Origin: Acidisphaera sp. S103 | GTDB taxonomy: Bacteria; Pseudomonadota; Alphaproteobacteria; Acetobacterales; Acetobacteraceae | Direction: 5' to 3' | Assembly: GCF_009765975.1 (NCBI RefSeq) | Contig: NZ_LMUJ01000064.1 | Location: forward strand, 114,872-178,871 | DNA length: 64,000 bases | Shown here: positions 22,012 through 30,915 of the stretch, one piece after another | How the letters are laid out: each line of letters begins with the position of its first letter | How positions within the stretch are numbered: position 1 is the first letter of the stretch | The notes under the pieces: generated by a model | Told to the model about the DNA's origin: nothing | Seen by the model: only the letters and a program-made list of their open reading frames with translations | Databases searched by the model: none | Position numbers and translations under genes: made by a program

Positions 22012-22479
22012 TCACCTCGCATAGTTCGCGTTGCGCCCTCGTGCCGGTTCAAGTGACGCTGTGATCAGTGGAGCACACCGAAATACCATCGCCGCCCGGC
22101 TTTCGACATTCAGCTTGGCGAATATCCGGCGCAGATATGTTGCCACCGTCCATTCGCTGATCCGCAGCCGATAGGCAATATTCTTGTTCGCATGCCCCTG
22201 CGCCACCAGGATGGCGATTTCAAGCTCCCGGCTCGTCAGGCGGGCCACCACATCGTCTACGACCTCGTCCTTGTGCTGCTCCTCGATAACGATCAATCCC
22301 AATCCACCCAGTTCAAATCGGCAGATTTGCGTATGCTCCGCATCGGCGTGCAAGTCCGATGCCAGCGTTACGATGAACTGGCGGTCGCCCAGTTCAATCC
22401 GCCCAACCTGACGAATATGGGATTTGTCACGGCCATTTCGGGCAGACATAAAGCCGTTGGCAGTGGACTGCTCGGCCAT
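22012..22479 (-). CDS. LuxR-family helix-turn-helix regulator
   Basis: 155-residue DNA-binding protein with a C-terminal GerE/LuxR domain: LTSRELEIAILVAQGHANKNIAYRLRIS then TVATYLRRIFAKLNVESRAAMV. The N-terminal 80 residues match no receiver or autoinducer domain that I recognise and read as a small beta-rich sensor (ELGDRQFIVTLASDL). ATG 22479 is chosen, with GGAG about 11 bases upstream; the frame is open back to TTG 22617, directly after the DUF4438 stop. It ends a minus-strand run of otherwise unknown genes and is the obvious candidate to control them. Lower GC than its neighbours. Confidence 0.82.
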   Translation of the reverse strand: MAEQSTANGFMSARNGRDKSHIRQVGRIELGDRQFIVTLASDLHADAEHTQICRFELGGLGLIVIEEQHKDEVVDDVVARLTSRELEIAILVAQGHANKNIAYRLRISEWTVATYLRRIFAKLNVESRAAMVFRCAPLITASLEPARGRNANYAR

Positions 22480-22617
22480 TTGTATGCAACTCCACCTATT
22501 TACGGCGACAACAGAGAACAGAAGAAAAATGTCCGCTGAAACAGGTTGTATCAACCGAAAACATTTTCTTGGCGTCGAACCCGTTGTGTAACTAGTAAGA
22601 TCAAATGTCCTCGCCAA

Positions 22618-23631
22618 TCAAGTAAAGGCCATCTTTTCACGAAAAGTTGAAACCTGTTGACGGACAGGCGGTTTGGCTGACACAGTACGTCCGGCAAGCG
22701 GTTGCCGTGCGCGTGGTGGAAGGACCGCGCGGCGTTGATAAATATAGGCAATATTGGCGTCGCTATCGCGGACGGGTCGCAGGCATGACGCCGGGCCGGT
22801 CAGCAGCGGTGTCACGCCAGGTCCGTGGGCGGCCGTCGTACTGTCGCTGTGGATCACAACACCAATCGTTATGTGGCCCCCGCGCCAGGCGGCACCGAAG
22901 CGCGCGTCGCTGTCCAGCACCGCGACCAGGTCACCAAACCGTAGCGTATCCAAACGATGGCGCCTGCGCGTTGGCGGATCAAATAGCTGAATGTCAAAAT
23001 CGCCGCGCCAGACATTGTTTTTGCCAAGCCCGGATCCGATGATCGCGGCCGGAACCATGTGGGTTACGCGCACCTCCAGCACGCCATCGTGCGCGCGCGG
23101 CTTCCAACGCCGTAACAGGCCTGGTGCACAATTGGTGACGGTAATTTGCTGAAAGTCAGGTAATTGCAGTCCCATGCCACAAGAATAGATTTGAATTTTG
23201 TCACCAATATTAAGCCGATACAGTGTCTTTTTATCGAAATCGACCAGCACATGGTCCGCACCGCCATGCTTGCCGGTCACCATGCCAACCGCGCCCGTCG
23301 CCGGACCGCTGACCACCCGCGCCGGATTACCAACACAGGCGCTGGTCAACAAAGCCATATTCGGACCATTTGCGGCGCCAATGATTTCGCGGCCGTTATT
23401 GTGCAGCGACACACCCGGCTCCACATGGTCGGCCGCGAGACCGACGCAGGGATCGCCAATCCGGCAATTCAGCGAGATTCCGCCGGTGCCGGGCAGTACC
23501 CGGGGCACGCCATCCTGGCCGATCCTGTAAGGGTTCGCGCGGCCGACCGGATGGGCGATCTGTCCCATCACCGCCTGGATGACCAACTCACCCGCGTTCA
23601 GCCGCAGCGGTTCAATGCGACCATTTGCCAC
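22618..23631 (-). CDS. DUF4438 domain protein
   Basis: 337-residue protein resembling the DUF4438 family (the group of Thermotoga TM1086), whose function is not established. Characteristic stretches are QIAHPVGRANPYRIGQDGVP, GTGGI, GDPCVGLAADHVEPGVS and GAVGMVTGKHGG. GTG 23631 follows GGGGGAGG by about six bases; the frame is open to 23784 without a better site. It overlaps the upstream gene's end by 20 bp, so translation is likely coupled. Base composition is less GC-rich than the rest of the cluster. Last unknown gene before the LuxR regulator. Confidence 0.78.
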   Translation of the reverse strand: MANGRIEPLRLNAGELVIQAVMGQIAHPVGRANPYRIGQDGVPRVLPGTGGISLNCRIGDPCVGLAADHVEPGVSLHNNGREIIGAANGPNMALLTSACVGNPARVVSGPATGAVGMVTGKHGGADHVLVDFDKKTLYRLNIGDKIQIYSCGMGLQLPDFQQITVTNCAPGLLRRWKPRAHDGVLEVRVTHMVPAAIIGSGLGKNNVWRGDFDIQLFDPPTRRRHRLDTLRFGDLVAVLDSDARFGAAWRGGHITIGVVIHSDSTTAAHGPGVTPLLTGPASCLRPVRDSDANIAYIYQRRAVLPPRARQPLAGRTVSAKPPVRQQVSTFREKMAFT

Positions 23632-24472
23632 GGTAATCCTCCCCCGCCAGATCGTACCAGAATGCGAGGGCGTCTTCCCACGCCCCTTTGACCGGCCTGG
23701 GCTCCAGTTCAGCCAGGAAACCGCCATCTTCCCCGCCATTGGCGAAGTCGTGCCCGAGCGGCAGCCTGCTGTGTCCGGGGGCAACGATATGCACGACGAC
23801 GAGACGCAGGCCGCCCCACAGGAATCCGGCCAGCCCGGCCTCGACCAGCATCTGCATCAGCAGGCCGCGCTCGATCGAGACCAGGTCGTCGACCAGTTCC
23901 AAACGCCGGCACGGCAGGTGCCACGCTTTCAGATGGTGGCACAGTGGAGGATCACCCTGGCCGCCGCGGCAGAGCAGAACCGACCCCGGCAGCAACGCCG
24001 TCAGCGCGGCCGCATCGCGCGTGGCCGCGACCATCGGCCCACTGGCCTCCACCGCTCGGGACAGACGCCCGTCCAGCGCTTCCGCCATGGCTTCCCACTG
24101 CGGCACCAGCGATTCATCCATGCCGGGCGGCAAACAGCTTTCCCGCACTGCGTCGCGCACCCAGCACAGCCGCCCGCTGCCTGGCCCGGCTGTATCGCGC
24201 AATCCTTGCCAGATGCGCAGGGCCTGACGCACTTCATCCGCATCGGGACTGCCGCCCTTGGACCACATCAATGCGGACGGCTCGCGGTCGTAGAGCAGCC
24301 AACTGTCCAGGATGTTCAGGAACTCGGGTCCCAACCAGATCTCGGCGTGGCCAGCCAGCCCGCGTATGAAGGCCGCCCCATCATGCGACAGGCAAAGATG
24401 GGGGTCGACGACGCAGCGCCAGCGCCGGCGGCTGATGTGCACCGATAAGTCGGGCTCCAGGCTCCGGACCAT
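23612..24472 (-). CDS. Unknown protein, cluster gene F
   Basis: 286-residue protein with no family I recognise. It is rich in tryptophan and leucine (IWLGPEFLNILDSWLLYD, LAGFLWGGLRLVVVHIVAPG), mostly soluble-looking and without a clear signal peptide. A central segment DAAALTALLPGSVLLCRGG and a C-terminal WEDALAFWYDLAGEDY are distinctive. ATG 24472 has GAGGGAG upstream. Lies 45 bp after gene E and overlaps the DUF4438 start by 20 bp, so it belongs to the same transcript. Possibly a specificity or chaperone partner of the DUF4438 protein, which is a guess. Confidence 0.65.
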   Translation of the reverse strand: MVRSLEPDLSVHISRRRWRCVVDPHLCLSHDGAAFIRGLAGHAEIWLGPEFLNILDSWLLYDREPSALMWSKGGSPDADEVRQALRIWQGLRDTAGPGSGRLCWVRDAVRESCLPPGMDESLVPQWEAMAEALDGRLSRAVEASGPMVAATRDAAALTALLPGSVLLCRGGQGDPPLCHHLKAWHLPCRRLELVDDLVSIERGLLMQMLVEAGLAGFLWGGLRLVVVHIVAPGHSRLPLGHDFANGGEDGGFLAELEPRPVKGAWEDALAFWYDLAGEDYRGKWSH

Positions 24473-24517
24473 GCGCGCCGCTCCCTCAAGGGTGTGACCA
24501 TTCCGGGCTGGACCCGG

Positions 24518-25633
24518 TTACAGATCGGCGAACGCAGGCTGAAGTTCCCGCCGCATTTTGGTCCCGAACACATCGTGCTGCACTTGGGGTGGCGCGCCGA
24601 CGAAACCGCGGCCCTCGGGGGTCATGCGGTAGGCCGCCAGCCACGCCTCGGCATGCTGGCCGATCTGCCCCATCTCCGTCTGGAACAGTGATGGGTCGAT
24701 CCCGGTCTTGAAATCATGGTCGGCGACGAACAGCAGGATGCGCCGCCCACTCTCGGCCATCTTGGCGCGCTGCGAGATGTCAGCCATGCCGCCCAGGTAA
24801 CGTTGCGACACCGCCTCGACCACGTTCCACCGCGTATTCGCATCGAACGCCTTCTTGATATCGGGGGCATCGAGCAGCGTCAGCACCTGCTTCAGATAAT
24901 GCCCGGTTTCCATCGACAGTGCATAGATGCTGCCGTAAGTCGCACGGTTCAGCGCATAGCGCAGATCGATGCCAAGCCGTTGCACCGTCGCGACGCTGCC
25001 GAATGCTCGGTTTCCAATCTGCTGGCCGCCGCGGATGACGTCGCCGATCCGCAGATCGCGGAGGTATTGTGCGACCGCGCCCATGAACCCGACGAGCTGG
25101 CGATGGAAATTCCGGTTGACCACGCCTTGCGTGCTTCCGTTGCCGCCATAGTTGAACGCCCGGCGATACGCTGCTTCCCGATGCCGTAGCGAATATCGTT
25201 GCGGCTGCCATTTTTCCAACAGGTACAGCCCCTTGGCGCCAGGTCCGCGGGTCAACTTGATGCTGCCGGAATGGAACAGGCGCAGCAGCACGTTCACCAC
25301 CTGGAATACTTTCGAGCGTTCATACTGATAGATAAAGTACAGTTCCGCCGATGCGTGCAACTGACTGGAGACGTAACTATAGTCGAAGTCCGGCTTCAGA
25401 TACGGGTACGCGATTTCCTCGAAGCCCACCGGGCCTTTCGGACCGACACCGATCATGTCGAGGAACCCGTCGCCGCCGCCCGGGGCCTCGGCGCCTTTTT
25501 CCGACAAGTCGGCAAAGCGCTCCTCGAACTGCTGCGCGTACGCCTGACGGTCTTCGGGCGGGACATTGGCGAGCTGGTCGCGGATAAAGCGGTCCCAGAG
25601 TCGCTGGATCGTTTCCGTTTGCTGGATGGTCAT
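24518..25633 (-). CDS. Unknown helical protein, cluster gene E
   Basis: 371-residue protein, apparently all-helical, without a recognised domain. The N-terminus is charged (ETIQRLWDRFIRD, then PPEDRQAYAQQFEERFADL). The centre holds FEEIAYPYLKPDFDYSYVSS, which is tyrosine-rich, and FQVVNVLLRLFHSG. Sequence LRIGDVIRGGQQIGNRAFGS is followed by a helical C-terminal half. No signal peptide or membrane span. ATG 25633 is preceded by TAGGAG. Lies 51 bp after gene D in the same direction. The size and helicity would suit a structural or scaffold component. Confidence 0.65.
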   Translation of the reverse strand: MTIQQTETIQRLWDRFIRDQLANVPPEDRQAYAQQFEERFADLSEKGAEAPGGGDGFLDMIGVGPKGPVGFEEIAYPYLKPDFDYSYVSSQLHASAELYFIYQYERSKVFQVVNVLLRLFHSGSIKLTRGPGAKGLYLLEKWQPQRYSLRHREAAYRRAFNYGGNGSTQGVVNRNFHRQLVGFMGAVAQYLRDLRIGDVIRGGQQIGNRAFGSVATVQRLGIDLRYALNRATYGSIYALSMETGHYLKQVLTLLDAPDIKKAFDANTRWNVVEAVSQRYLGGMADISQRAKMAESGRRILLFVADHDFKTGIDPSLFQTEMGQIGQHAEAWLAAYRMTPEGRGFVGAPPQVQHDVFGTKMRRELQPAFADL

Positions 25634-25684
25634 CGAACAGCTCCTAGACTGATGGTGCCGATTACTTCGCCACGCTGATGGCGC

Positions 25685-26548
25685 TTACTTCTTCTTCCGA
25701 GCCTGCACCTTGCGGACGGGGTTGCCGGCCTGTCGCATCGGGCGGGCCTGGGTTGTCCGGACTGGCTCGTCGGGGTCCCTATTCTCGCCCTCTTCCACCA
25801 CGACGATGACGGGCGAACCGGCTTCGCGCACGGCTTCTCCCAGCGCCTCCGTTGCGGCTTCCGATTCGCCCAGTTCGAAGCCCATTTCAACGACACGATC
25901 GGACAGGCCGCGATGCGCGGCATCAAGCCGCAGGACATGCGCTTCCAATGCCTGAATCCTGGCATCGCTGGCGGACTTCGCGGTCTGTAGTTCGGTGATC
26001 CCGGCAGCCCCTTTCTCGATTGCCTTCTCCTGGCTATCGACTACCGCGTGCAATTGCTCGACCGGCATTTTTACAAAGGGTTTCAGCATTTCCCCGAAGT
26101 CGGAGATGAACGGACTGACCGTGTGCTCCGCGGCGACGTCTTGGGCGGCCGCTGCTGCGCCAGCGGTGCCTTGGCTGGCGGCCCCCGGCGGAGCCGCCGT
26201 GCCAACAGCTCCGCCAAGCGGGGTCGCCGCACCAGACGATCCTCCTGTCGGCGATGTGGCTGCCGAATGTTTGCTGCCTGCCGCCGCGCCCGGAACGATA
26301 TAGTCGACATATTTCTTTATGTTTTTCTCGATAGCCTTTACTTCGCCGACCAGTTCCGCCAGCAGTAACGCTTTGATGGCCGAAATCCCGACCAGCGTGC
26401 CGCGGACCTCGTGGCGATCCAACAGCTCCCTCAGATCGCCCAACACATCGGGCACGATCAGCGCGGCCAGGGACGACACAGGCGGTGGCGTGCCTGCTCC
26501 GCCTGCGCTGGAACTGCCGCTCCCTACGACAATGAGTGAATCGCTCAT
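25685..26548 (-). CDS. Unknown coiled-coil protein, cluster gene D
   Basis: 287-residue protein in three parts: an N-terminal helical domain (about 25-90, LAALIVPDVLGDLRELLDRHE then EVKAIEKNIKKYVDYIVPG), a low-complexity Ala/Gly/Ser/Thr linker (about 90-145) and a predicted coiled coil (about 165-245) ending in a basic tail with RKVQARKKK. The start ATG 26548 overlaps the stop of gene C as TGATG, so the two proteins are translationally coupled and probably made in fixed ratio. No known family. The architecture fits a tether or adaptor between larger components. Confidence 0.65.
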   Translation of the reverse strand: MSDSLIVVGSGSSSAGGAGTPPPVSSLAALIVPDVLGDLRELLDRHEVRGTLVGISAIKALLLAELVGEVKAIEKNIKKYVDYIVPGAAAGSKHSAATSPTGGSSGAATPLGGAVGTAAPPGAASQGTAGAAAAAQDVAAEHTVSPFISDFGEMLKPFVKMPVEQLHAVVDSQEKAIEKGAAGITELQTAKSASDARIQALEAHVLRLDAAHRGLSDRVVEMGFELGESEAATEALGEAVREAGSPVIVVVEEGENRDPDEPVRTTQARPMRQAGNPVRKVQARKKK

Positions 26549-28416
26549 CACACTTTCCTCGCGATAATATCCAGGCTCTGTTCGTATTGCTGCGGCAGGG
26601 CCGGCGCCATGCGCGGCAGTTTGCCGACGTTGGCCTCGTAAGCCGCCTGCCGGATCACCAGCTTGAGCAGCCGGAACACGTATTGCTGATCGCCGGCCTC
26701 CAAAGACACCGTGCGCACCAGATTTTCCCAGCGCTCTTCAAGGCTTTCCTGAACGCGCAGTTCTTCCGCCAGGCCCCGTCTCTGCCGTTCATCCAATAGC
26801 GGCGGTGGCACTTTGGTTGACGGGATCTGGTAGTAGCGCGTGAACGCCCGGTCCAGACCTTTGACCTCCATGGTCGCGGTTGCGTAGTCGGCCCGGATCT
26901 GTGCCAGATCGGCCTGTAATTTCGAGCCGGGTACGGCATATTCGTTGATGGGACCACCGGCGAAGTTGGCAGAGCCGCCCGTCACCAGTTTGTAAATCAC
27001 ATCGATGATCGACCAGAACGCCATAGCCCGCCACTCGGTCGGGCCGCCCTCGCTGGTCAATGAACCAAGCGCCAGCAAGTCGATCCCGCGGTCCAGTTCC
27101 AGGAGCAGCATGTCGAGCAACACCTGTGGCTGCACCCCGCGCGCGCTGTTGCTTGGGAACAACCCGTCGAAAATTGTCGCCAGGGTGCCGCGTACCGAAA
27201 TCAGGTCGAAAAGACTGTTGTCGTCTTCCAACTGGTTCATGTTGTAGAGGCCGTACAGCAGGATCGGCGGCCGGGCGATGCGCAGCAGGCGCAGCCCGCC
27301 GGCGGGACGGAAAGTCTCGGCGAACAGTTCCAGAGCCTGCAGATAGGATTCCAGCGGCGGCGAACGGTCGAAATGCCCGTCCTCCCGCGACATCGCGCCG
27401 GGCGCGACGATCGCCATGCGCCGGAACCGCTCGATATCGAGCTGCGCTGTCACCCCTAAAGCCCGCAAGCCGTCGGACGTGCCATTGTGTGCCCGTGTGA
27501 TCAGCCCATCCATGGTCTGGGCGATTTCGTTTTCCAACAGCAGCGACCGCAGATCGCCCTGGCCCTGCTCCTCCAGCCACAGATAAAGCCGGCGATAGGC
27601 GTCGATGCCGCGCGGCCAGTCATTCGGCGTAACCGACTGTTGTGAGCCGCCATTGAAGTTGCGCAGTGCGTAGATCACCGCGTCGCGCCGCTGTTGCAGT
27701 TCGGGTACCGGCACTTGCAGCAAGTAATACCCGGTCGCGAAGCCGACACTGGCCAGCGATTCGCCCAGCATCACCAGCAGCACGGCCGCAACCTCATCCA
27801 GCGCGCGTCCCAGCCGGCGGAAGTTCTGAGTCATGCCGGGCGACAGCGACCCGACGAAACGCGCCATACGTGCGTATTCGCCGAGCTGGCGCCGCACCGC
27901 GATCACCTTGTCGCGCTGGGTCGGGTCCAACCCCTGCCTCGCGGCGGCATGGCCCTGGATGACGGCGGCCCGGATCGAGTCGCCCCAGCCCTGCATTTCA
28001 GGCGTTATGTCGTTAGTCAGCGGGTTGCTCGCCAGGTCGATCAGCGCTTTCTCCACGTCGCCGTTGGCGATGCGGAATTCGGTGTCCGACGAACTGGACT
28101 GCGCCGCCAGCGATGGCTGCTGCGCCAGCATCGCAGCGGGCGGCAGGCTGGGCAGACCCATCAGTTCCTGCCGGAGTCCGGCGGCTTGCGGCAGATCCTG
28201 ATAATAGGACATCAGCCCTTCGGCGATCTGCCTGGCGTCCCGTGGATTGCTCACCTTCAGGTGGTTGCGCAGCATATTATCCAGCGCGAGGCCGACATGC
28301 CCGTTGCTGCCGTGGCTATTATGGCCGCCTTGACCACCCTGGCCATGCGATGCGCCGTTGAGCGACGAGCTGTGGGACCCGCCTCCGCTGTAGTAACTGT
28401 TCGGGGAAAGGGACAT
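26548..28416 (-). CDS. Unknown large protein with Gly/Ser/His-rich N-terminus, cluster gene C
   Basis: 622-residue protein, the largest of the unknown cluster. The first 40 residues are low complexity (Gly, Ser, His, Asn, for example GGQGGHNSHGSNGH). The rest is mainly helical, with one hydrophobic stretch near residues 208-238 (AAVLLVMLGESLASVGFATG) that could be a membrane or core helix. NPRDARQIAEGLMSYYQDLP near residue 57 looks like a compact helical domain. ATG 28416 follows GAGGT. Ends in TGATG coupling with gene D. No family recognised; a structural or membrane-associated role is plausible. Confidence 0.65.
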   Translation of the reverse strand: MSLSPNSYYSGGGSHSSSLNGASHGQGGQGGHNSHGSNGHVGLALDNMLRNHLKVSNPRDARQIAEGLMSYYQDLPQAAGLRQELMGLPSLPPAAMLAQQPSLAAQSSSSDTEFRIANGDVEKALIDLASNPLTNDITPEMQGWGDSIRAAVIQGHAAARQGLDPTQRDKVIAVRRQLGEYARMARFVGSLSPGMTQNFRRLGRALDEVAAVLLVMLGESLASVGFATGYYLLQVPVPELQQRRDAVIYALRNFNGGSQQSVTPNDWPRGIDAYRRLYLWLEEQGQGDLRSLLLENEIAQTMDGLITRAHNGTSDGLRALGVTAQLDIERFRRMAIVAPGAMSREDGHFDRSPPLESYLQALELFAETFRPAGGLRLLRIARPPILLYGLYNMNQLEDDNSLFDLISVRGTLATIFDGLFPSNSARGVQPQVLLDMLLLELDRGIDLLALGSLTSEGGPTEWRAMAFWSIIDVIYKLVTGGSANFAGGPINEYAVPGSKLQADLAQIRADYATATMEVKGLDRAFTRYYQIPSTKVPPPLLDERQRRGLAEELRVQESLEERWENLVRTVSLEAGDQQYVFRLLKLVIRQAAYEANVGKLPRMAPALPQQYEQSLDIIARKV

Positions 28417-28445
28417 GACCTACCTCGTTTCGTTGGGTTCGCGGA

Positions 28446-29843
28446 TCAGGATGCCAGCGCCGCTTGCGCGGCACTGATGGTGACGGGGGCGGACGGATGG
28501 TCTTCAGTCAGGCGGCCGACCAACTGCGTCGAGAGTGATCGAGGCTGCAGCCGGCCGGTCTGCAAGGCGTAGCTGGCGGCGCTGACCAGATAGCGGGGCG
28601 GCAACGACCGGTCCGGCAGGCGGCCCTCAACCAGATGCCGCTTTCCCGCAAGGATCGCGTCCTGGTCCTCCCGCCGGAACCGGATGATATCCGCCAGCGC
28701 CCGGTGTGCCAGGTTTCGCCGTGTCTGGTAGGCGATCTCATCGACAATATGCGGCATCAGCTTGTCCGTGCTACGTAGCAGCCGTTCGGGCAGGCGATGG
28801 AACCGACGCGGATTATACAGGGTTCGCCACACGCGATCGAGCCGCGTCGCATCCGTCGTGAAACCCATGCGGCGCAGCATTTCCACCAACAGCAGGACGC
28901 GCAGGAATCCGGTCGGGTGGGCACCGGCCCGATAGGTCAGCGCGCGCGGCGCGGGATGCGCCAGGAACAGCGCCATGCCCCAGGCCACCGCCGGCCCGCC
29001 GAGCAGCATCGCCGCCAGGTCGGCGAAAATTTCCTTGTGCCAGCGGCCATAAATCACGGCCAGTCGAGGATCGCCTGATACGGTCATCACCCGCTTGGTG
29101 ACGGCGATCTTGTTTTCGTACCAGATTCCCATGTCGGCTTGCAGGTTGTGCGCGATTTCATGGACGAACACCGGCTCCCACGGGTTGTCGCGATCCCAGG
29201 GGATGCGAATCACCGGAAACGGGTTCGATTCACCCAGCAGCCGGGTCAGCACCACACCCCGGCGCATCGTCGCCGGCGAGTAGCCATGTTCCATGTACGT
29301 GACCGGTGCCAGGGCTTTGCCGCTGAGCAGGCGTGGCGCGTGCTGTCGCACCGCGTCGTAACAGTCGCGGGCGATGACGTCGTGCGCCGCCAGGGCCGGT
29401 GCATAGGTGCTGCCGCGTTGGCTGAACACCTCGAAGAACATGCCGAAGGCGCGGCGGGCGCGATCGATCTCGCGCTCGACCAGGGCGATATCGATCAGGA
29501 CGCGCTGCGGCCTTGTGCTCGTCCACTCACGCTGCACGGTCCGCACACGGCGGGCTATTTCGTGATCGATGGACGTCAGGCGATCGTTCGCTGCTTTGAA
29601 ATGGTCGGGGGACGGAGCAAAGGGCAGGTCCTGCGGCCGGATGCCCACGGAGTCATAGTCGATCCGCGAAAGGCGGCGGGCTCGGGCTGTCAGCCCGATG
29701 ATCCGCTCCCGCAGGAACGCGCTGACTTCGAGGATTGCCTTCGCACCCATGGCTGGACGTCCTACTGGCCGGGCGACATGCAGGGTCGCATGTCGGCGTG
29801 TTCGGAAGGCGGCGGGGTCGTTGGGGGCGGCCGGCTGTTGCAC
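28446..29843 (-). CDS. Putative zinc metalloprotease (HEIAH), cluster gene B
   Basis: 465-residue protein with a zincin active site: HEIAH at 228-232 in PVFVHEIAHNLQADMG, and about 40 residues later HKEIFADLAAML, whose E271 is a suitable third ligand. This is a gluzincin pattern. The approach sequence IPWDRDNPWEPVFVHEIAH is unlike families I know. No signal peptide or membrane span is apparent, so the target should be cytoplasmic. The start is GTG 29843 (GGGGGAAG close upstream); ATG 29750 with AGGA is an alternative that removes 31 residues. Second gene of the unknown cluster, 31 bp after gene A. Confidence 0.72.
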   Translation of the reverse strand: MQQPAAPNDPAAFRTRRHATLHVARPVGRPAMGAKAILEVSAFLRERIIGLTARARRLSRIDYDSVGIRPQDLPFAPSPDHFKAANDRLTSIDHEIARRVRTVQREWTSTRPQRVLIDIALVEREIDRARRAFGMFFEVFSQRGSTYAPALAAHDVIARDCYDAVRQHAPRLLSGKALAPVTYMEHGYSPATMRRGVVLTRLLGESNPFPVIRIPWDRDNPWEPVFVHEIAHNLQADMGIWYENKIAVTKRVMTVSGDPRLAVIYGRWHKEIFADLAAMLLGGPAVAWGMALFLAHPAPRALTYRAGAHPTGFLRVLLLVEMLRRMGFTTDATRLDRVWRTLYNPRRFHRLPERLLRSTDKLMPHIVDEIAYQTRRNLAHRALADIIRFRREDQDAILAGKRHLVEGRLPDRSLPPRYLVSAASYALQTGRLQPRSLSTQLVGRLTEDHPSAPVTISAAQAALAS

Positions 29844-29874
29844 CGGCTTCCCCCAACATTGGTGGTCTGCTTAC

Positions 29875-30915
29875 TCAGCCCGACGTGATTGTCAGGTGAA
29901 TCGGTCCATGGAACCGCATCGTGCGCCGCCGTCCGCAGCTCGGGCAGACCGCACCCGACGCCCGCAGGCCGCTGTGGCGCGCAGTACCGAGCGCCATGGC
30001 GGTACCCGTCATGGCGGTACCCGTCCGGTGCGTCCGGAACCGGTTCCGGCCCATCCCGCGGGCCATGCCCCGATGATGACGCCGCCCGGGGCGCAGGCGC
30101 ATGCGGTGCGTGGTCTGCGCCAGTTTGCGCAACACCCGTGGCGAACGAGCCGCCGCCTTCACGGTTTGGGCAACCACGCGTGGCAGATGGCGTACCGGTA
30201 GACGCTTGCGAGCAATCACTTTCCGAGCGTGGCTGACGATGGCCGGCATCGCCTGCACCGCCTTCGGTCCGTGCTTGCGCACCAGATGCTTGGTTGCAGC
30301 GGTAACGGTCTTCACCAGCGCCCGGCGCTGCGGACGCGGCAGAGCAGCCGTATGATGCTTCAAGGCCGACTTGATCGCCACGCCTGCAATGGCGGGGGCG
30401 AGCGCATCGATCGCCTCTTCATCGTCGGCGAAATCGGCGAGATCGTCGAACCCATCCATTTCGTCGGCTTCATCGGCCATGACCTTACCGACGATGTCGG
30501 CGGCGCGGCCGATGAGTTGGGCTTGCGGGATGGGAATCATCTTGGCGAGCGGTGCCACCCAGCGGGCACCCTTGCCGATGGCGCCGCCGACCTTCTTCAG
30601 GGCCCTACCGAGCCCACTCCAGAATTCGTCGGCATCGGCTGCCTCCAGCGCGTCAGTGACGCCTTCTTCCAGCTCGTCCGCCGACTCCTCGTCGAACGTG
30701 TCGCCCGGGTCGTCCAGTTCGTCGAATTCGTCCATGGCTTCGAACTCCGCGGGAGCGTCGAATCCGTCGTCATCGAATTCGTTGACGTCGTCGAATTCAT
30801 CGGATGCCTCCAGTTCGTCGGCGCCTTCGAATTCGTCAAAGGCGCTGTGACCGCCTTTGCCTTCGGGCTCTTCCGCCATTTCGTCCAACAGGTCTTCATC
30901 GAATCTATCGCTCAT
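29875..30915 (-). CDS. Charge-segregated protein, cluster gene A
   Basis: 346-residue protein with extreme charge segregation. Residues 1-97 are acidic with repeated DEF/FDE units. Residues 98-147 form a cationic amphipathic segment (SGLGRALKKVGGAIGKGARW then VAPLAKMIPIP). Residues 148-170 are acidic again and 182-346 strongly basic, ending in a CPSC pair (324-327). This layout resembles uncharacterised acidic-repeat proteins in other bacteria. ATG 30915 follows a CAGGAGAGCAACG ribosome site. First gene of the cluster, 31 bp before the zinc protease, with a 443-bp upstream gap for regulation. It could be a precursor processed by that protease; this is speculation. Confidence 0.65.
   Translation of the reverse strand: MSDRFDEDLLDEMAEEPEGKGGHSAFDEFEGADELEASDEFDDVNEFDDDGFDAPAEFEAMDEFDELDDPGDTFDEESADELEEGVTDALEAADADEFWSGLGRALKKVGGAIGKGARWVAPLAKMIPIPQAQLIGRAADIVGKVMADEADEMDGFDDLADFADDEEAIDALAPAIAGVAIKSALKHHTAALPRPQRRALVKTVTAATKHLVRKHGPKAVQAMPAIVSHARKVIARKRLPVRHLPRVVAQTVKAAARSPRVLRKLAQTTHRMRLRPGRRHHRGMARGMGRNRFRTHRTGTAMTGTAMALGTARHSGLRASGAVCPSCGRRRTMRFHGPIHLTITSG

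What the first reader, a model, noticed from the sequence alone, without database searches (positions are those of the whole stretch)
22012..30915. Candidate undescribed system: seven unknown genes plus a LuxR regulator
Seven same-strand genes (A 29875-30915 through DUF4438 22618-23631) are spaced 31, 29, TGATG-coupled, 51, 45 bp and a 20-bp overlap, so they form one transcript, and a LuxR-type regulator gene follows. Products are: a charge-segregated protein, a zincin protease, a 622-residue protein with a Gly/Ser/His-rich start, a coiled-coil protein, an all-helical protein, an unknown and a DUF4438 protein. None looks metabolic, unlike everything around them. My inference is a multiprotein assembly with a proteolytic maturation step; the protease and the putative precursor are the first two genes.
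Basis: partly seen in the sequence, partly recalled or inferred. Interest (0 to 1): 0.8.

Follow-up and report, generated by a model that had tools for sequence, protein, structure and literature searches.

The report
Conserved uncharacterised protease–precursor operon
Seven neighbouring genes of unknown function plus a regulator turn out to be one gene block that recurs, largely in the same order, in very different bacteria; it pairs a metal-dependent protease with a charge-masked, membrane-peptide-like protein, and the papers searched do not describe it.

Summary
In detail: seven minus-strand genes plus a LuxR-type gene lie at window 22012-30915 with the stated spacing. The block is conserved. 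Of 82 distinct loci chosen by a B relative (five phyla), A lies directly upstream of B in 77; four of the other five start at a contig edge. B-C-E-F follow in order in 63 of the 70 loci with room. DUF4438 is found in 59 of 82, a trypsin-like protease in 29, the LuxR-type gene in 69. It is rare and patchy, and the B tree suggests transfer. No Pfam, NCBIfam, PADLOC or PHROGs family matched A-F credibly.

New anatomy: A has an acidic N-terminal half, a strongly amphipathic cationic segment, a basic C-terminal half and, in 85 of 120 rows, a GPVxIxI-like tail. B keeps HExxH plus a KE..D strip. E is almost frozen; D appears hypervariable. F's model resembles PIN domains, weakly.

Best reading: A is a charge-masked, possibly membrane-active precursor processed by B within a conflict-type system. 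Inferred, not shown.

The parts
29875..30915 (-). Gene A, 346 aa: acidic N-terminal region (residues 1-100: 45 D/E, 2 K/R), DEFW junction, cationic amphipathic segment, basic C-terminal region (residues 181-346: 39 K/R, 0 D/E), C-terminal GPIHLTI tail
   Evidence: A immediately upstream of B in 77 of 82 loci
30490..30624 (-). A residues 98-142, cationic amphipathic segment right after the DEF junction; net charge +6, maximum helical moment 0.69 in the window copy (below the family median 0.79)
29878..29907 (-). A C-terminal tail GPIHLTITSG, the window's version of the family's GPVxIxI-like tail
   Evidence: 85 of 120 complete A rows; 2 of 1247 other mechanically called ORFs
28446..29843 (-). 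Gene B, 465 aa, predicted gluzincin metallopeptidase without an N-terminal hydrophobic stretch (GTG start; ATG at 29750 also possible)
29148..29162 (-). B HEIAH zinc-binding motif (third ligand probably the E of HKEIFAD, codons at 29031-29039)
   Evidence: HExxH in 83 of 83 rows; KE..D strip in 83 of 83 (76 as H[KR]E..[AS]D, 7 as QKE or PKE)
26548..28416 (-). Gene C, 622 aa, Gly/Ser/His-rich start, no known family; no structure predicted here
25685..26548 (-). Gene D, about 287 aa from the TGATG-coupled ATG, coiled-coil-like, in the fast-evolving position between C and E
24518..25633 (-). Gene E, 371 aa, all-helical model, the most conserved protein of the block
23612..24472 (-). Gene F, 286 aa, alpha/beta model nearest to PIN domains, with nearly invariant D23, D107, D153
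22618..23631 (-). Gene G, DUF4438 (both domains), relative of Thermotoga TM1086 of solved structure
22012..22617 (-). Gene H, small regulator with a C-terminal LuxR/GerE helix-turn-helix; start uncertain

Best explanation
The block encodes one co-inherited protease-effector system without a recognisable NTPase. A is made as an inert precursor: its acidic N-terminal half masks a cationic, strongly amphipathic helix and a basic C-terminal half. The probably cytoplasmic zincin B (in some lineages with the trypsin-like T) processes A, most plausibly near the DEF(F/L/V/W) junction, and frees a membrane-active or polycation effector. C, E and the variable D form the scaffold that holds or triggers it; F (PIN-like) and lineage-specific partners (GIY-YIG-like, methyltransferase-like, DUF4438) add further activities, and the LuxR-type H controls expression. 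Most likely use: biological conflict (self-killing on infection, or antagonism after lysis). Shown here: co-inheritance, domain anatomy, conserved zinc-site residues. Inferred: location, cleavage of A by B, masking, membrane action, scaffold role, conflict role.
For: A directly precedes B in 77 of 82 loci, and B-C-E-F are in order in 63 of 70 loci with room. Zinc-ligand pattern in 83 of 83 rows (partly selected by the search pattern). A segments: 97 of 120 rows, median charge +8, helical moment 0.79 against 0.45 in 1488 charged background windows (0.7% reach the A median), 82 of 97 beat shuffles at p<0.05. C-terminal tail in 85 of 120 complete A rows (33 of 50 representatives under 60% identity) against 2 of 1247 other called ORFs. 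[DE]EF[FLVW] somewhere in 42 of 50 representatives. No hydrophobic N-terminal 12-mer in B (0 of 83 rows) or T (0 of 31 rows). B-like proteins lie beside CHAT, C25, S8, patatin and phospholipase D genes and a large ATP-binding protein on two rhizobial plasmids, and E-like proteins beside S8 proteases. Patchy distribution and probable transfer. F model nearest PIN domains.
Against: No cleavage, toxicity or defence data. The A segment was anchored on [DE]EF[FLVW] taking the most cationic anchor, so its charge is partly selected; 23 of 120 A rows gave no segment and 15 of 97 did not beat shuffles; the window's own segment is weaker (+6, 0.69). The junction pattern can arise by chance in acidic repeats. 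35 of 120 A rows lack the tail by my pattern. The background ORFs are mechanical calls and include spurious ones. PADLOC found no defence family in A-G, and B has no phage or viral-contig relative. The window's flanks look metabolic by my reading of translations. E and B are very conserved, unlike arms-race proteins. G is unexplained. The CHAT link rests on two weak partial hits (25% identity over 53%, 33% over 37% of B) without an adjacent A. Location rests on hydropathy alone, and starts are uncertain; C has one borderline hydrophobic stretch.
Confidence: 0.4

Rival explanations
1. A nucleic-acid-handling assembly: the basic half of A binds DNA or RNA, its acidic half keeps it soluble, and F (PIN-like) with the GIY-YIG-like partner cut nucleic acid; the proteases remodel or switch it.
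For: Residues 181-346 of window A hold 39 K/R and no D/E; F model resembles PIN domains; GIY-YIG-like gene in 19 distinct loci by my reading and a Pfam GIY-YIG hit just above cut-off (E=1e-4) in the distant type L102.
Against: The amphipathic helix suits membranes; PIN match is weak (best E 0.085); no nucleic-acid-binding family credibly matched in C, E or F; the window copy lacks the GIY-YIG-like gene.
Confidence: 0.22
2. A self-assembling protein particle or compartment: E is the conserved shell or core, C and the variable D decorate it, A is tagged cargo (C-terminal GPVxIxI docking strand), and the proteases mature it.
For: E is 97-99% identical within three close groups and 81% across seven cyanobacteria while the ORF in the D position falls to 10%; a short C-terminal tail is shared by most A.
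Against: E model is all-helical with no PDB match at E<0.1; no phage or viral-contig relative of B and no PHROGs match for A-G; nothing shows oligomers.
Confidence: 0.2
3. A domesticated phage or tail-like particle cluster.
For: Multi-gene same-strand block with a protease and helical and coiled-coil-like proteins; T of a relative matches one PHROGs family of unknown function (phrog_13651, E=1.9e-5).
Against: No PHROGs match for window A-G; no phage record and no viral contig encodes a B relative.
Confidence: 0.03
4. Unrelated housekeeping genes that happen to sit together.
For: Flanking genes look metabolic by their translations.
Against: B-C-E-F in order in 63 of 70 loci with room, over five phyla; E found in only 3 of 98 relatives' genomes, own included.
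Confidence: 0.02

Closest known systems
Zincin metallopeptidase + FxSxx-COOH-type precursor modules of VMAP/FtsH ternary conflict systems (PMC7159879; passages and section 24 seen)
   Same: A zincin encoded beside a fast-diverging precursor with a more conserved C-terminal motif; considered a peptide toxin or signal module.
   Different: None of the eight window proteins matched vWA, MoxR, FtsH, radical SAM or AP-ATPase families; A is large (median 349 aa) with acidic and basic halves and a GPVxIxI-like tail; mostly Proteobacteria and Cyanobacteria.
Protease-nuclease pairs of Hachiman, AVAST and canu defence loci (PMC12799240; passages seen)
   Same: A protease encoded beside a pro-effector kept inactive until cut; trypsin-like proteases.
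   Different: Those nucleases are MBL-fold and sit with other defence components such as HamA/HamB, Avs1a or a caspase; here the nuclease-like protein is PIN-like and no NTPase is apparent.
Bacterial gasdermins with partner proteases (listing and abstract starts seen; mechanism recalled)
   Same: Membrane-active effector released by a partner protease.
   Different: Recalled: gasdermin is a different, beta-rich fold with a short C-terminal inhibitory peptide; A is acidic/basic with an amphipathic helix.
LypABC CARD-NLR-like lysis system (PMC13236601; outline and passages seen)
   Same: Peptidase-based lysis machinery under a dedicated regulator in an alphaproteobacterium.
   Different: Trypsin-like domains fused to ATPase and endonuclease domains; the terms metallopeptidase, zinc and LuxR do not occur in its main text.
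DUF4438 / Thermotoga TM1086 (PDB 3dcl, 3n99)
   Same: Gene G is a full-length relative (E about 9e-57).
   Different: No function is given by Pfam; no paper in the library holds the term DUF4438.
Cationic antimicrobial peptides with anionic pro-regions (cecropin, defensin type; recalled, no call)
   Same: Acidic pro-region next to a cationic amphipathic helix.
   Different: No signal-peptide-like start, much larger protein, a second long basic region, zincin partner.

Membership tests
Zincin (gluzincin) metallopeptidase, gene B | HExxH zinc-binding helix | tested here: met
   83 of 83 rows; one of the two search patterns was HE[VI]AHNLQ, so this is partly selected
Zincin (gluzincin) metallopeptidase, gene B | Downstream Glu third ligand | tested here: met
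   KE..D in 83 of 83 rows: 76 as H[KR]E..[AS]D, 7 as QKE or PKE (the other search pattern was [WL]HKE[IS][FY]AD); ligand role inferred
Zincin (gluzincin) metallopeptidase, gene B | Statistical match to a known peptidase family | tested here: not met
   No Pfam family, only a non-credible NCBIfam hit, no PDB sequence
PIN-like nuclease, gene F | PIN alpha/beta fold | tested here: inconclusive
   Model pLDDT 87.7; 8 of the top 12 PDB matches are PIN domains of EST1A/SMG6 and SMG5, but E 0.085-0.85 and TM to query 0.19-0.24
PIN-like nuclease, gene F | Conserved acidic active-site residues | tested here: inconclusive
   D23, D107, D153 nearly invariant in 62 sequences; closeness in space not measured
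DUF4438, gene G | Both Pfam domains above cut-off | tested here: met
   170.4 and 145.9 bits against 24.9 and 27
FxSxx-COOH type peptide-processing module | Zincin beside a variable precursor with a conserved C-terminal motif | tested here: met
   the motif differs (GPVxIxI-like, not FxSxx, RxD or acidic); that A is a precursor is inferred
FxSxx-COOH type peptide-processing module | Linked vWA-MoxR or FtsH ternary genes or AP-ATPase | tested here: not met
   None of the eight window proteins matches such a family; Walker A-like strings in at most 3 of 82 rows of any gene family; genes further out were not scanned
Known anti-phage defence systems | PADLOC family match in the core genes | tested here: not met
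   No match for A-G; H matches CARF3 models over its helix-turn-helix part only, T of a relative weakly RT-Protease_XI E=0.0085
Phage-derived particle | PHROGs or viral relatives | tested here: not met
   No PHROGs match for A-G, one for T (unknown function, E=1.9e-5); no B relative in phages or viral contigs
Antimicrobial peptide precursor | Cationic amphipathic helix next to an anionic pro-region | tested here: met
   (sequence computation only)
Antimicrobial peptide precursor | Membrane permeabilisation after processing | not testable with these tools
   needs a bench test

The most novel reading that the evidence does not exclude
A previously undescribed, horizontally spread bacterial conflict system that needs no NTPase: a charge-masked, cecropin-like effector (A) held by a helical scaffold (E, C, hypervariable D) and released by a dedicated cytoplasmic zincin (B), with lineage-specific second proteases and nucleases and its own LuxR-type regulator.
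Probability: 0.3. Interest if true: 0.88.

Novelty: categorically new. Interest (0 to 1): 0.74.

Why it matters
A block of about eight to ten genes kept largely in order across Proteobacteria, Cyanobacteria, Myxococcota, a planctomycete and a desulfuromonad, with six core proteins that none of the four family libraries tried could name, is probably a whole machine of unknown purpose. It makes testable predictions (a protease-substrate pair, a junction, a tail, three nuclease-like aspartates) and places DUF4438, a family with a solved structure and no stated function, in a conserved setting.

Tried and rejected
Phage-particle reading: disfavoured, as B has no phage or viral-contig relative and A-G no PHROGs match. 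Known defence family: no PADLOC match for A-G. Homology of C and E: hhalign found none. C-prime of the distant type as an E homologue: co-linear over 229 and 202 columns but P 0.047 and 0.031, probability 1-2%, so left as a suggestion. Fold match for E: none credible. Pfam scans of 62 F and 68 C sequences gave only scattered sub-threshold hits; one F member matched fvmX1 at 0.051, judged chance. PDB profile searches with F, C and E gave nothing convincing. Insertion site in the genus: the two flanking genes are themselves patchy (matches in 6 of 33 and 9 of 33 genomes, own included), and no listed relative had both on one contig, so no empty site could be read. Window A has no second copy in its genome and no plasmid relative. 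Promoter and terminator scan uninformative. Paper searches by composition returned no paper. A search of 143 relatives of G156 for more C-prime found only G156 itself.
Full report
OBSERVATION. B may start at an in-frame ATG (29750) rather than the GTG at 29843. Pfam sees credibly only DUF4438 in G and the GerE helix-turn-helix in H; NCBIfam only helix-turn-helix models for H; the other listed hits are far below cut-off. DUF4438 matches Thermotoga TM1086, of solved structure.

DOES THE BLOCK RECUR? It is rare. Counts include the window's own genome. With the window E protein: 3 of 98 genomes among relatives (one, G023, has only E-like proteins in another setting) and 5 of 398 across the phylum, two of them marginal. 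With profiles: B in 5 of 398 (two of them the distant type) and E in 3 of 398. Where a close relative exists, so does the block: G053 (L005) has A-B-C-(D)-E-F, a trypsin-like gene and the LuxR gene; G264 (L011) has A-B-C-(D)-E-F-G, two small genes, the trypsin-like gene and the LuxR gene; G192 (L012) has A, an acidic ORF, B, an unmatched 619-aa ORF, E and the LuxR gene. A scan of 84,980 species genomes with a four-sequence B alignment gave 108 relatives, the best 80 kept: Proteobacteria, Cyanobacteria (including Microcystis and Leptolyngbya), Corallococcus and another Myxococcaceae, Candidatus Kuenenia and a Desulfuromonas. With the window and L012 these make 82 distinct loci. Profile searches of six frames placed each family. 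Of the 82: A in 78, B in 82 (by selection), C in 80, E in 76, F in 67, G in 59, H in 69, T in 29. Most misses of A, C, E and H lie at or near ends of the held DNA. F is really absent from the five Corallococcus loci that reach past E and from L012 and L013; L013, the window's nearest relative, also has H far upstream on the other strand. A sits directly upstream of B in 77 of 82; four of the five exceptions have B at the contig edge, the fifth is L012. B-C-E-F follow in order in 63 of the 70 loci with more than 6.5 kb after B. Of 67 loci with A, B, E and H, 60 also have C and F; 38 carry DUF4438 without the trypsin-like gene, 16 carry both, 12 the trypsin-like gene without DUF4438, one neither. 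H is last in the block in most loci, but upstream and divergent in many betaproteobacterial ones and one Pseudomonas, and convergent in Corallococcus.

SPREAD. In the B tree the window copy pairs with an Acetobacteraceae metagenome copy (L013, 100/100) inside a 40-row clade with cyanobacteria and gamma- and betaproteobacteria (96/95), away from Roseomonas, Belnapia and Pseudoroseomonas copies. Transfer is the simplest reading; the tree has one very long branch (L012) and many metagenome bins, and the tool warns that label changes alone do not prove transfer. Plasmids gave 3 records with B and 2 with E, all distant; phages and viral contigs none for B.

ANATOMY OF A. Across 121 rows the first half is net negative in 110 and the second half net positive in 120. 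Between them lies a segment after [DE]EF[FLVW]: found in 97 of 120 rows, median charge +8, median maximum helical moment 0.79, against 0.45 in 1488 charged windows of other called ORFs, 0.7% of which reach the A median; 82 of 97 beat shuffles at p<0.05. I took the most cationic anchor per protein, so charge is partly selected; the shuffles keep composition; the background ORFs are mechanical calls, some spurious; rows are related to one another. The window's segment is weaker than most (+6, 0.69). The C-terminus carries a GPVxIxI-like pattern near the end in 85 of 120 complete rows, against 2 of 1247 other called ORFs. With near relatives removed (under 60% identity), 33 of 50 keep the tail and 42 of 50 hold the DEF pattern somewhere; in acidic repeats that pattern can also arise by chance. 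A loose N-terminal motif was present in 77 of 120. The likeness to cecropin is recalled and in style only, not a database match.

B, T AND LOCATION. B keeps HExxH and a downstream KE..D strip in every row; both strips were search patterns, so this is partly selected. Neither B nor T has a hydrophobic N-terminal 12-mer (0 of 83 and 0 of 31 rows), so they are probably cytoplasmic; this is hydropathy with uncertain starts, not a signal-peptide predictor. T of L011 matches Pfam Trypsin (E=4e-11); over 31 T rows, some of them fragments, the His motif was seen in 29 and the strict Ser motif in 23.

C, D, E, F. Within three close groups (Mesorhizobium; Aromatoleum; Roseateles with a Rubrivivax bin) E is 97-99% identical, B 92-94%, A 88-90%, F 68-87%, H 75-81%, and the ORF in the D position only 52-72%; across seven cyanobacteria E is 81%, and D 10% over the 15 pairs of six. 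D was picked mechanically as the longest ORF between C and E, so its values may be too low in places. In 15 loci the C-E gap, counted with 60-bp margins, was under 250 bp and no D was called; in some of these the C ORF is long (769-800 aa in L033, L057, L066), so D may be fused to C. The E model is all-helical (mean pLDDT 77) with no PDB match under E 0.1. F was modelled well (mean pLDDT 87.7, pTM 0.86); 8 of its top 12 PDB matches are PIN domains of human EST1A/SMG6 and SMG5, at weak E (0.085-0.85) and low TM. D23, D107 and D153 are nearly invariant. C has no family; a Cys cluster occurs in 37 of 81 C rows but not in the window's.

PARTNERS AND DISTANT TYPES. A gene with a Cys-rich start and a GIY-YIG-like tail (my reading; the L056 copy has no Pfam hit) occurs in 19 distinct loci; in L011 it lies between DUF4438 and the trypsin-like gene. 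A methyltransferase-like gene (my reading, not scanned) occurs in 8 distinct loci. A distant type in two genomes (L102, L103) and on three plasmids (L109-L111) has an acidic A-prime, B-prime and C-prime; L102 also encodes a Pfam GIY-YIG domain just above cut-off (E=1e-4). On two rhizobial plasmids, partial B-like matches sit beside annotated CHAT proteins, with a C25 peptidase and a large ATP-binding protein in one and S8, patatin and phospholipase D genes in the other; no A-like gene is annotated there. E-like proteins sit beside S8 proteases in L096 (annotated) and L006 (my reading). Such neighbours are common in conflict systems (passages of PMC8195603 and PMC7159879).

MECHANISM. The strongest inference is the A-B pair: adjacency this constant, with a zincin and a masked precursor, is what a protease-substrate pair looks like. 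That the product is membrane-active is the best fit of the helix; nucleic-acid binding by the basic half is the main rival. A conflict role is supported by patchiness, probable transfer, the variable D and the neighbours of distant B-like and E-like proteins, and weakened by the lack of a PADLOC match for A-G, the window's metabolic-looking flanks, and the near-frozen E and B. The LuxR-type gene suggests conditional expression. I put 0.4 on the whole statement and would put more on the A-B pairing alone.

COMPARISON. The nearest described design found is the zincin plus FxSxx-COOH-type precursor module of ternary conflict systems (PMC7159879, section 24): same logic, but here no ternary, radical SAM or ATPase gene among the eight, and a different tail. 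Nuclease-protease pairs (PMC12799240, passages) share proteolytic activation. I found no paper on this block: searches (DUF4438, none; TM1086: 7 papers, listing only, mostly on a worm allele of that name; none; related systems), in an open-access library that lacks most subscription journals.

NOVELTY. No described system with this composition was found, and A-F of the window fall outside Pfam, NCBIfam, PADLOC and PHROGs; I rate it categorically new as a system, with the caveat that its working principle may prove a known one.

Noticed in passing
L006 (G023:C98) and L096:7711-15867: A separate kind of cassette pairs an E-like protein with an S8 subtilase; in L006 at least two paralogous proteins begin with a (P)EVR..LL..F..LP-type motif. 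Those scanned matched no Pfam family.
   Followed up: partly
   Followed up: partly
L094 and L095: Partial B-like matches sit beside CHAT proteins, with a C25 peptidase and a large ATP-binding protein (Sinorhizobium) or S8, patatin and phospholipase D genes (Bradyrhizobium).
   Followed up: partly
L026 and L031: Roseateles puraquae and a Methylotenera metagenome bin carry nearly identical B (branches 0.003 and 0.01): recent transfer or a binning error.
   Followed up: no
L093:1322-4018: A WD40-repeat protein with a TIR-like start is encoded near the distant A-B-E cassette of a Paraburkholderia megaplasmid (reading of the translation only).
   Followed up: no
window 26548-28416: The window C protein lacks the C-x(2-4)-C-x-C-x(4-10)-C cluster present in 37 of 81 C rows.
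   Followed up: no
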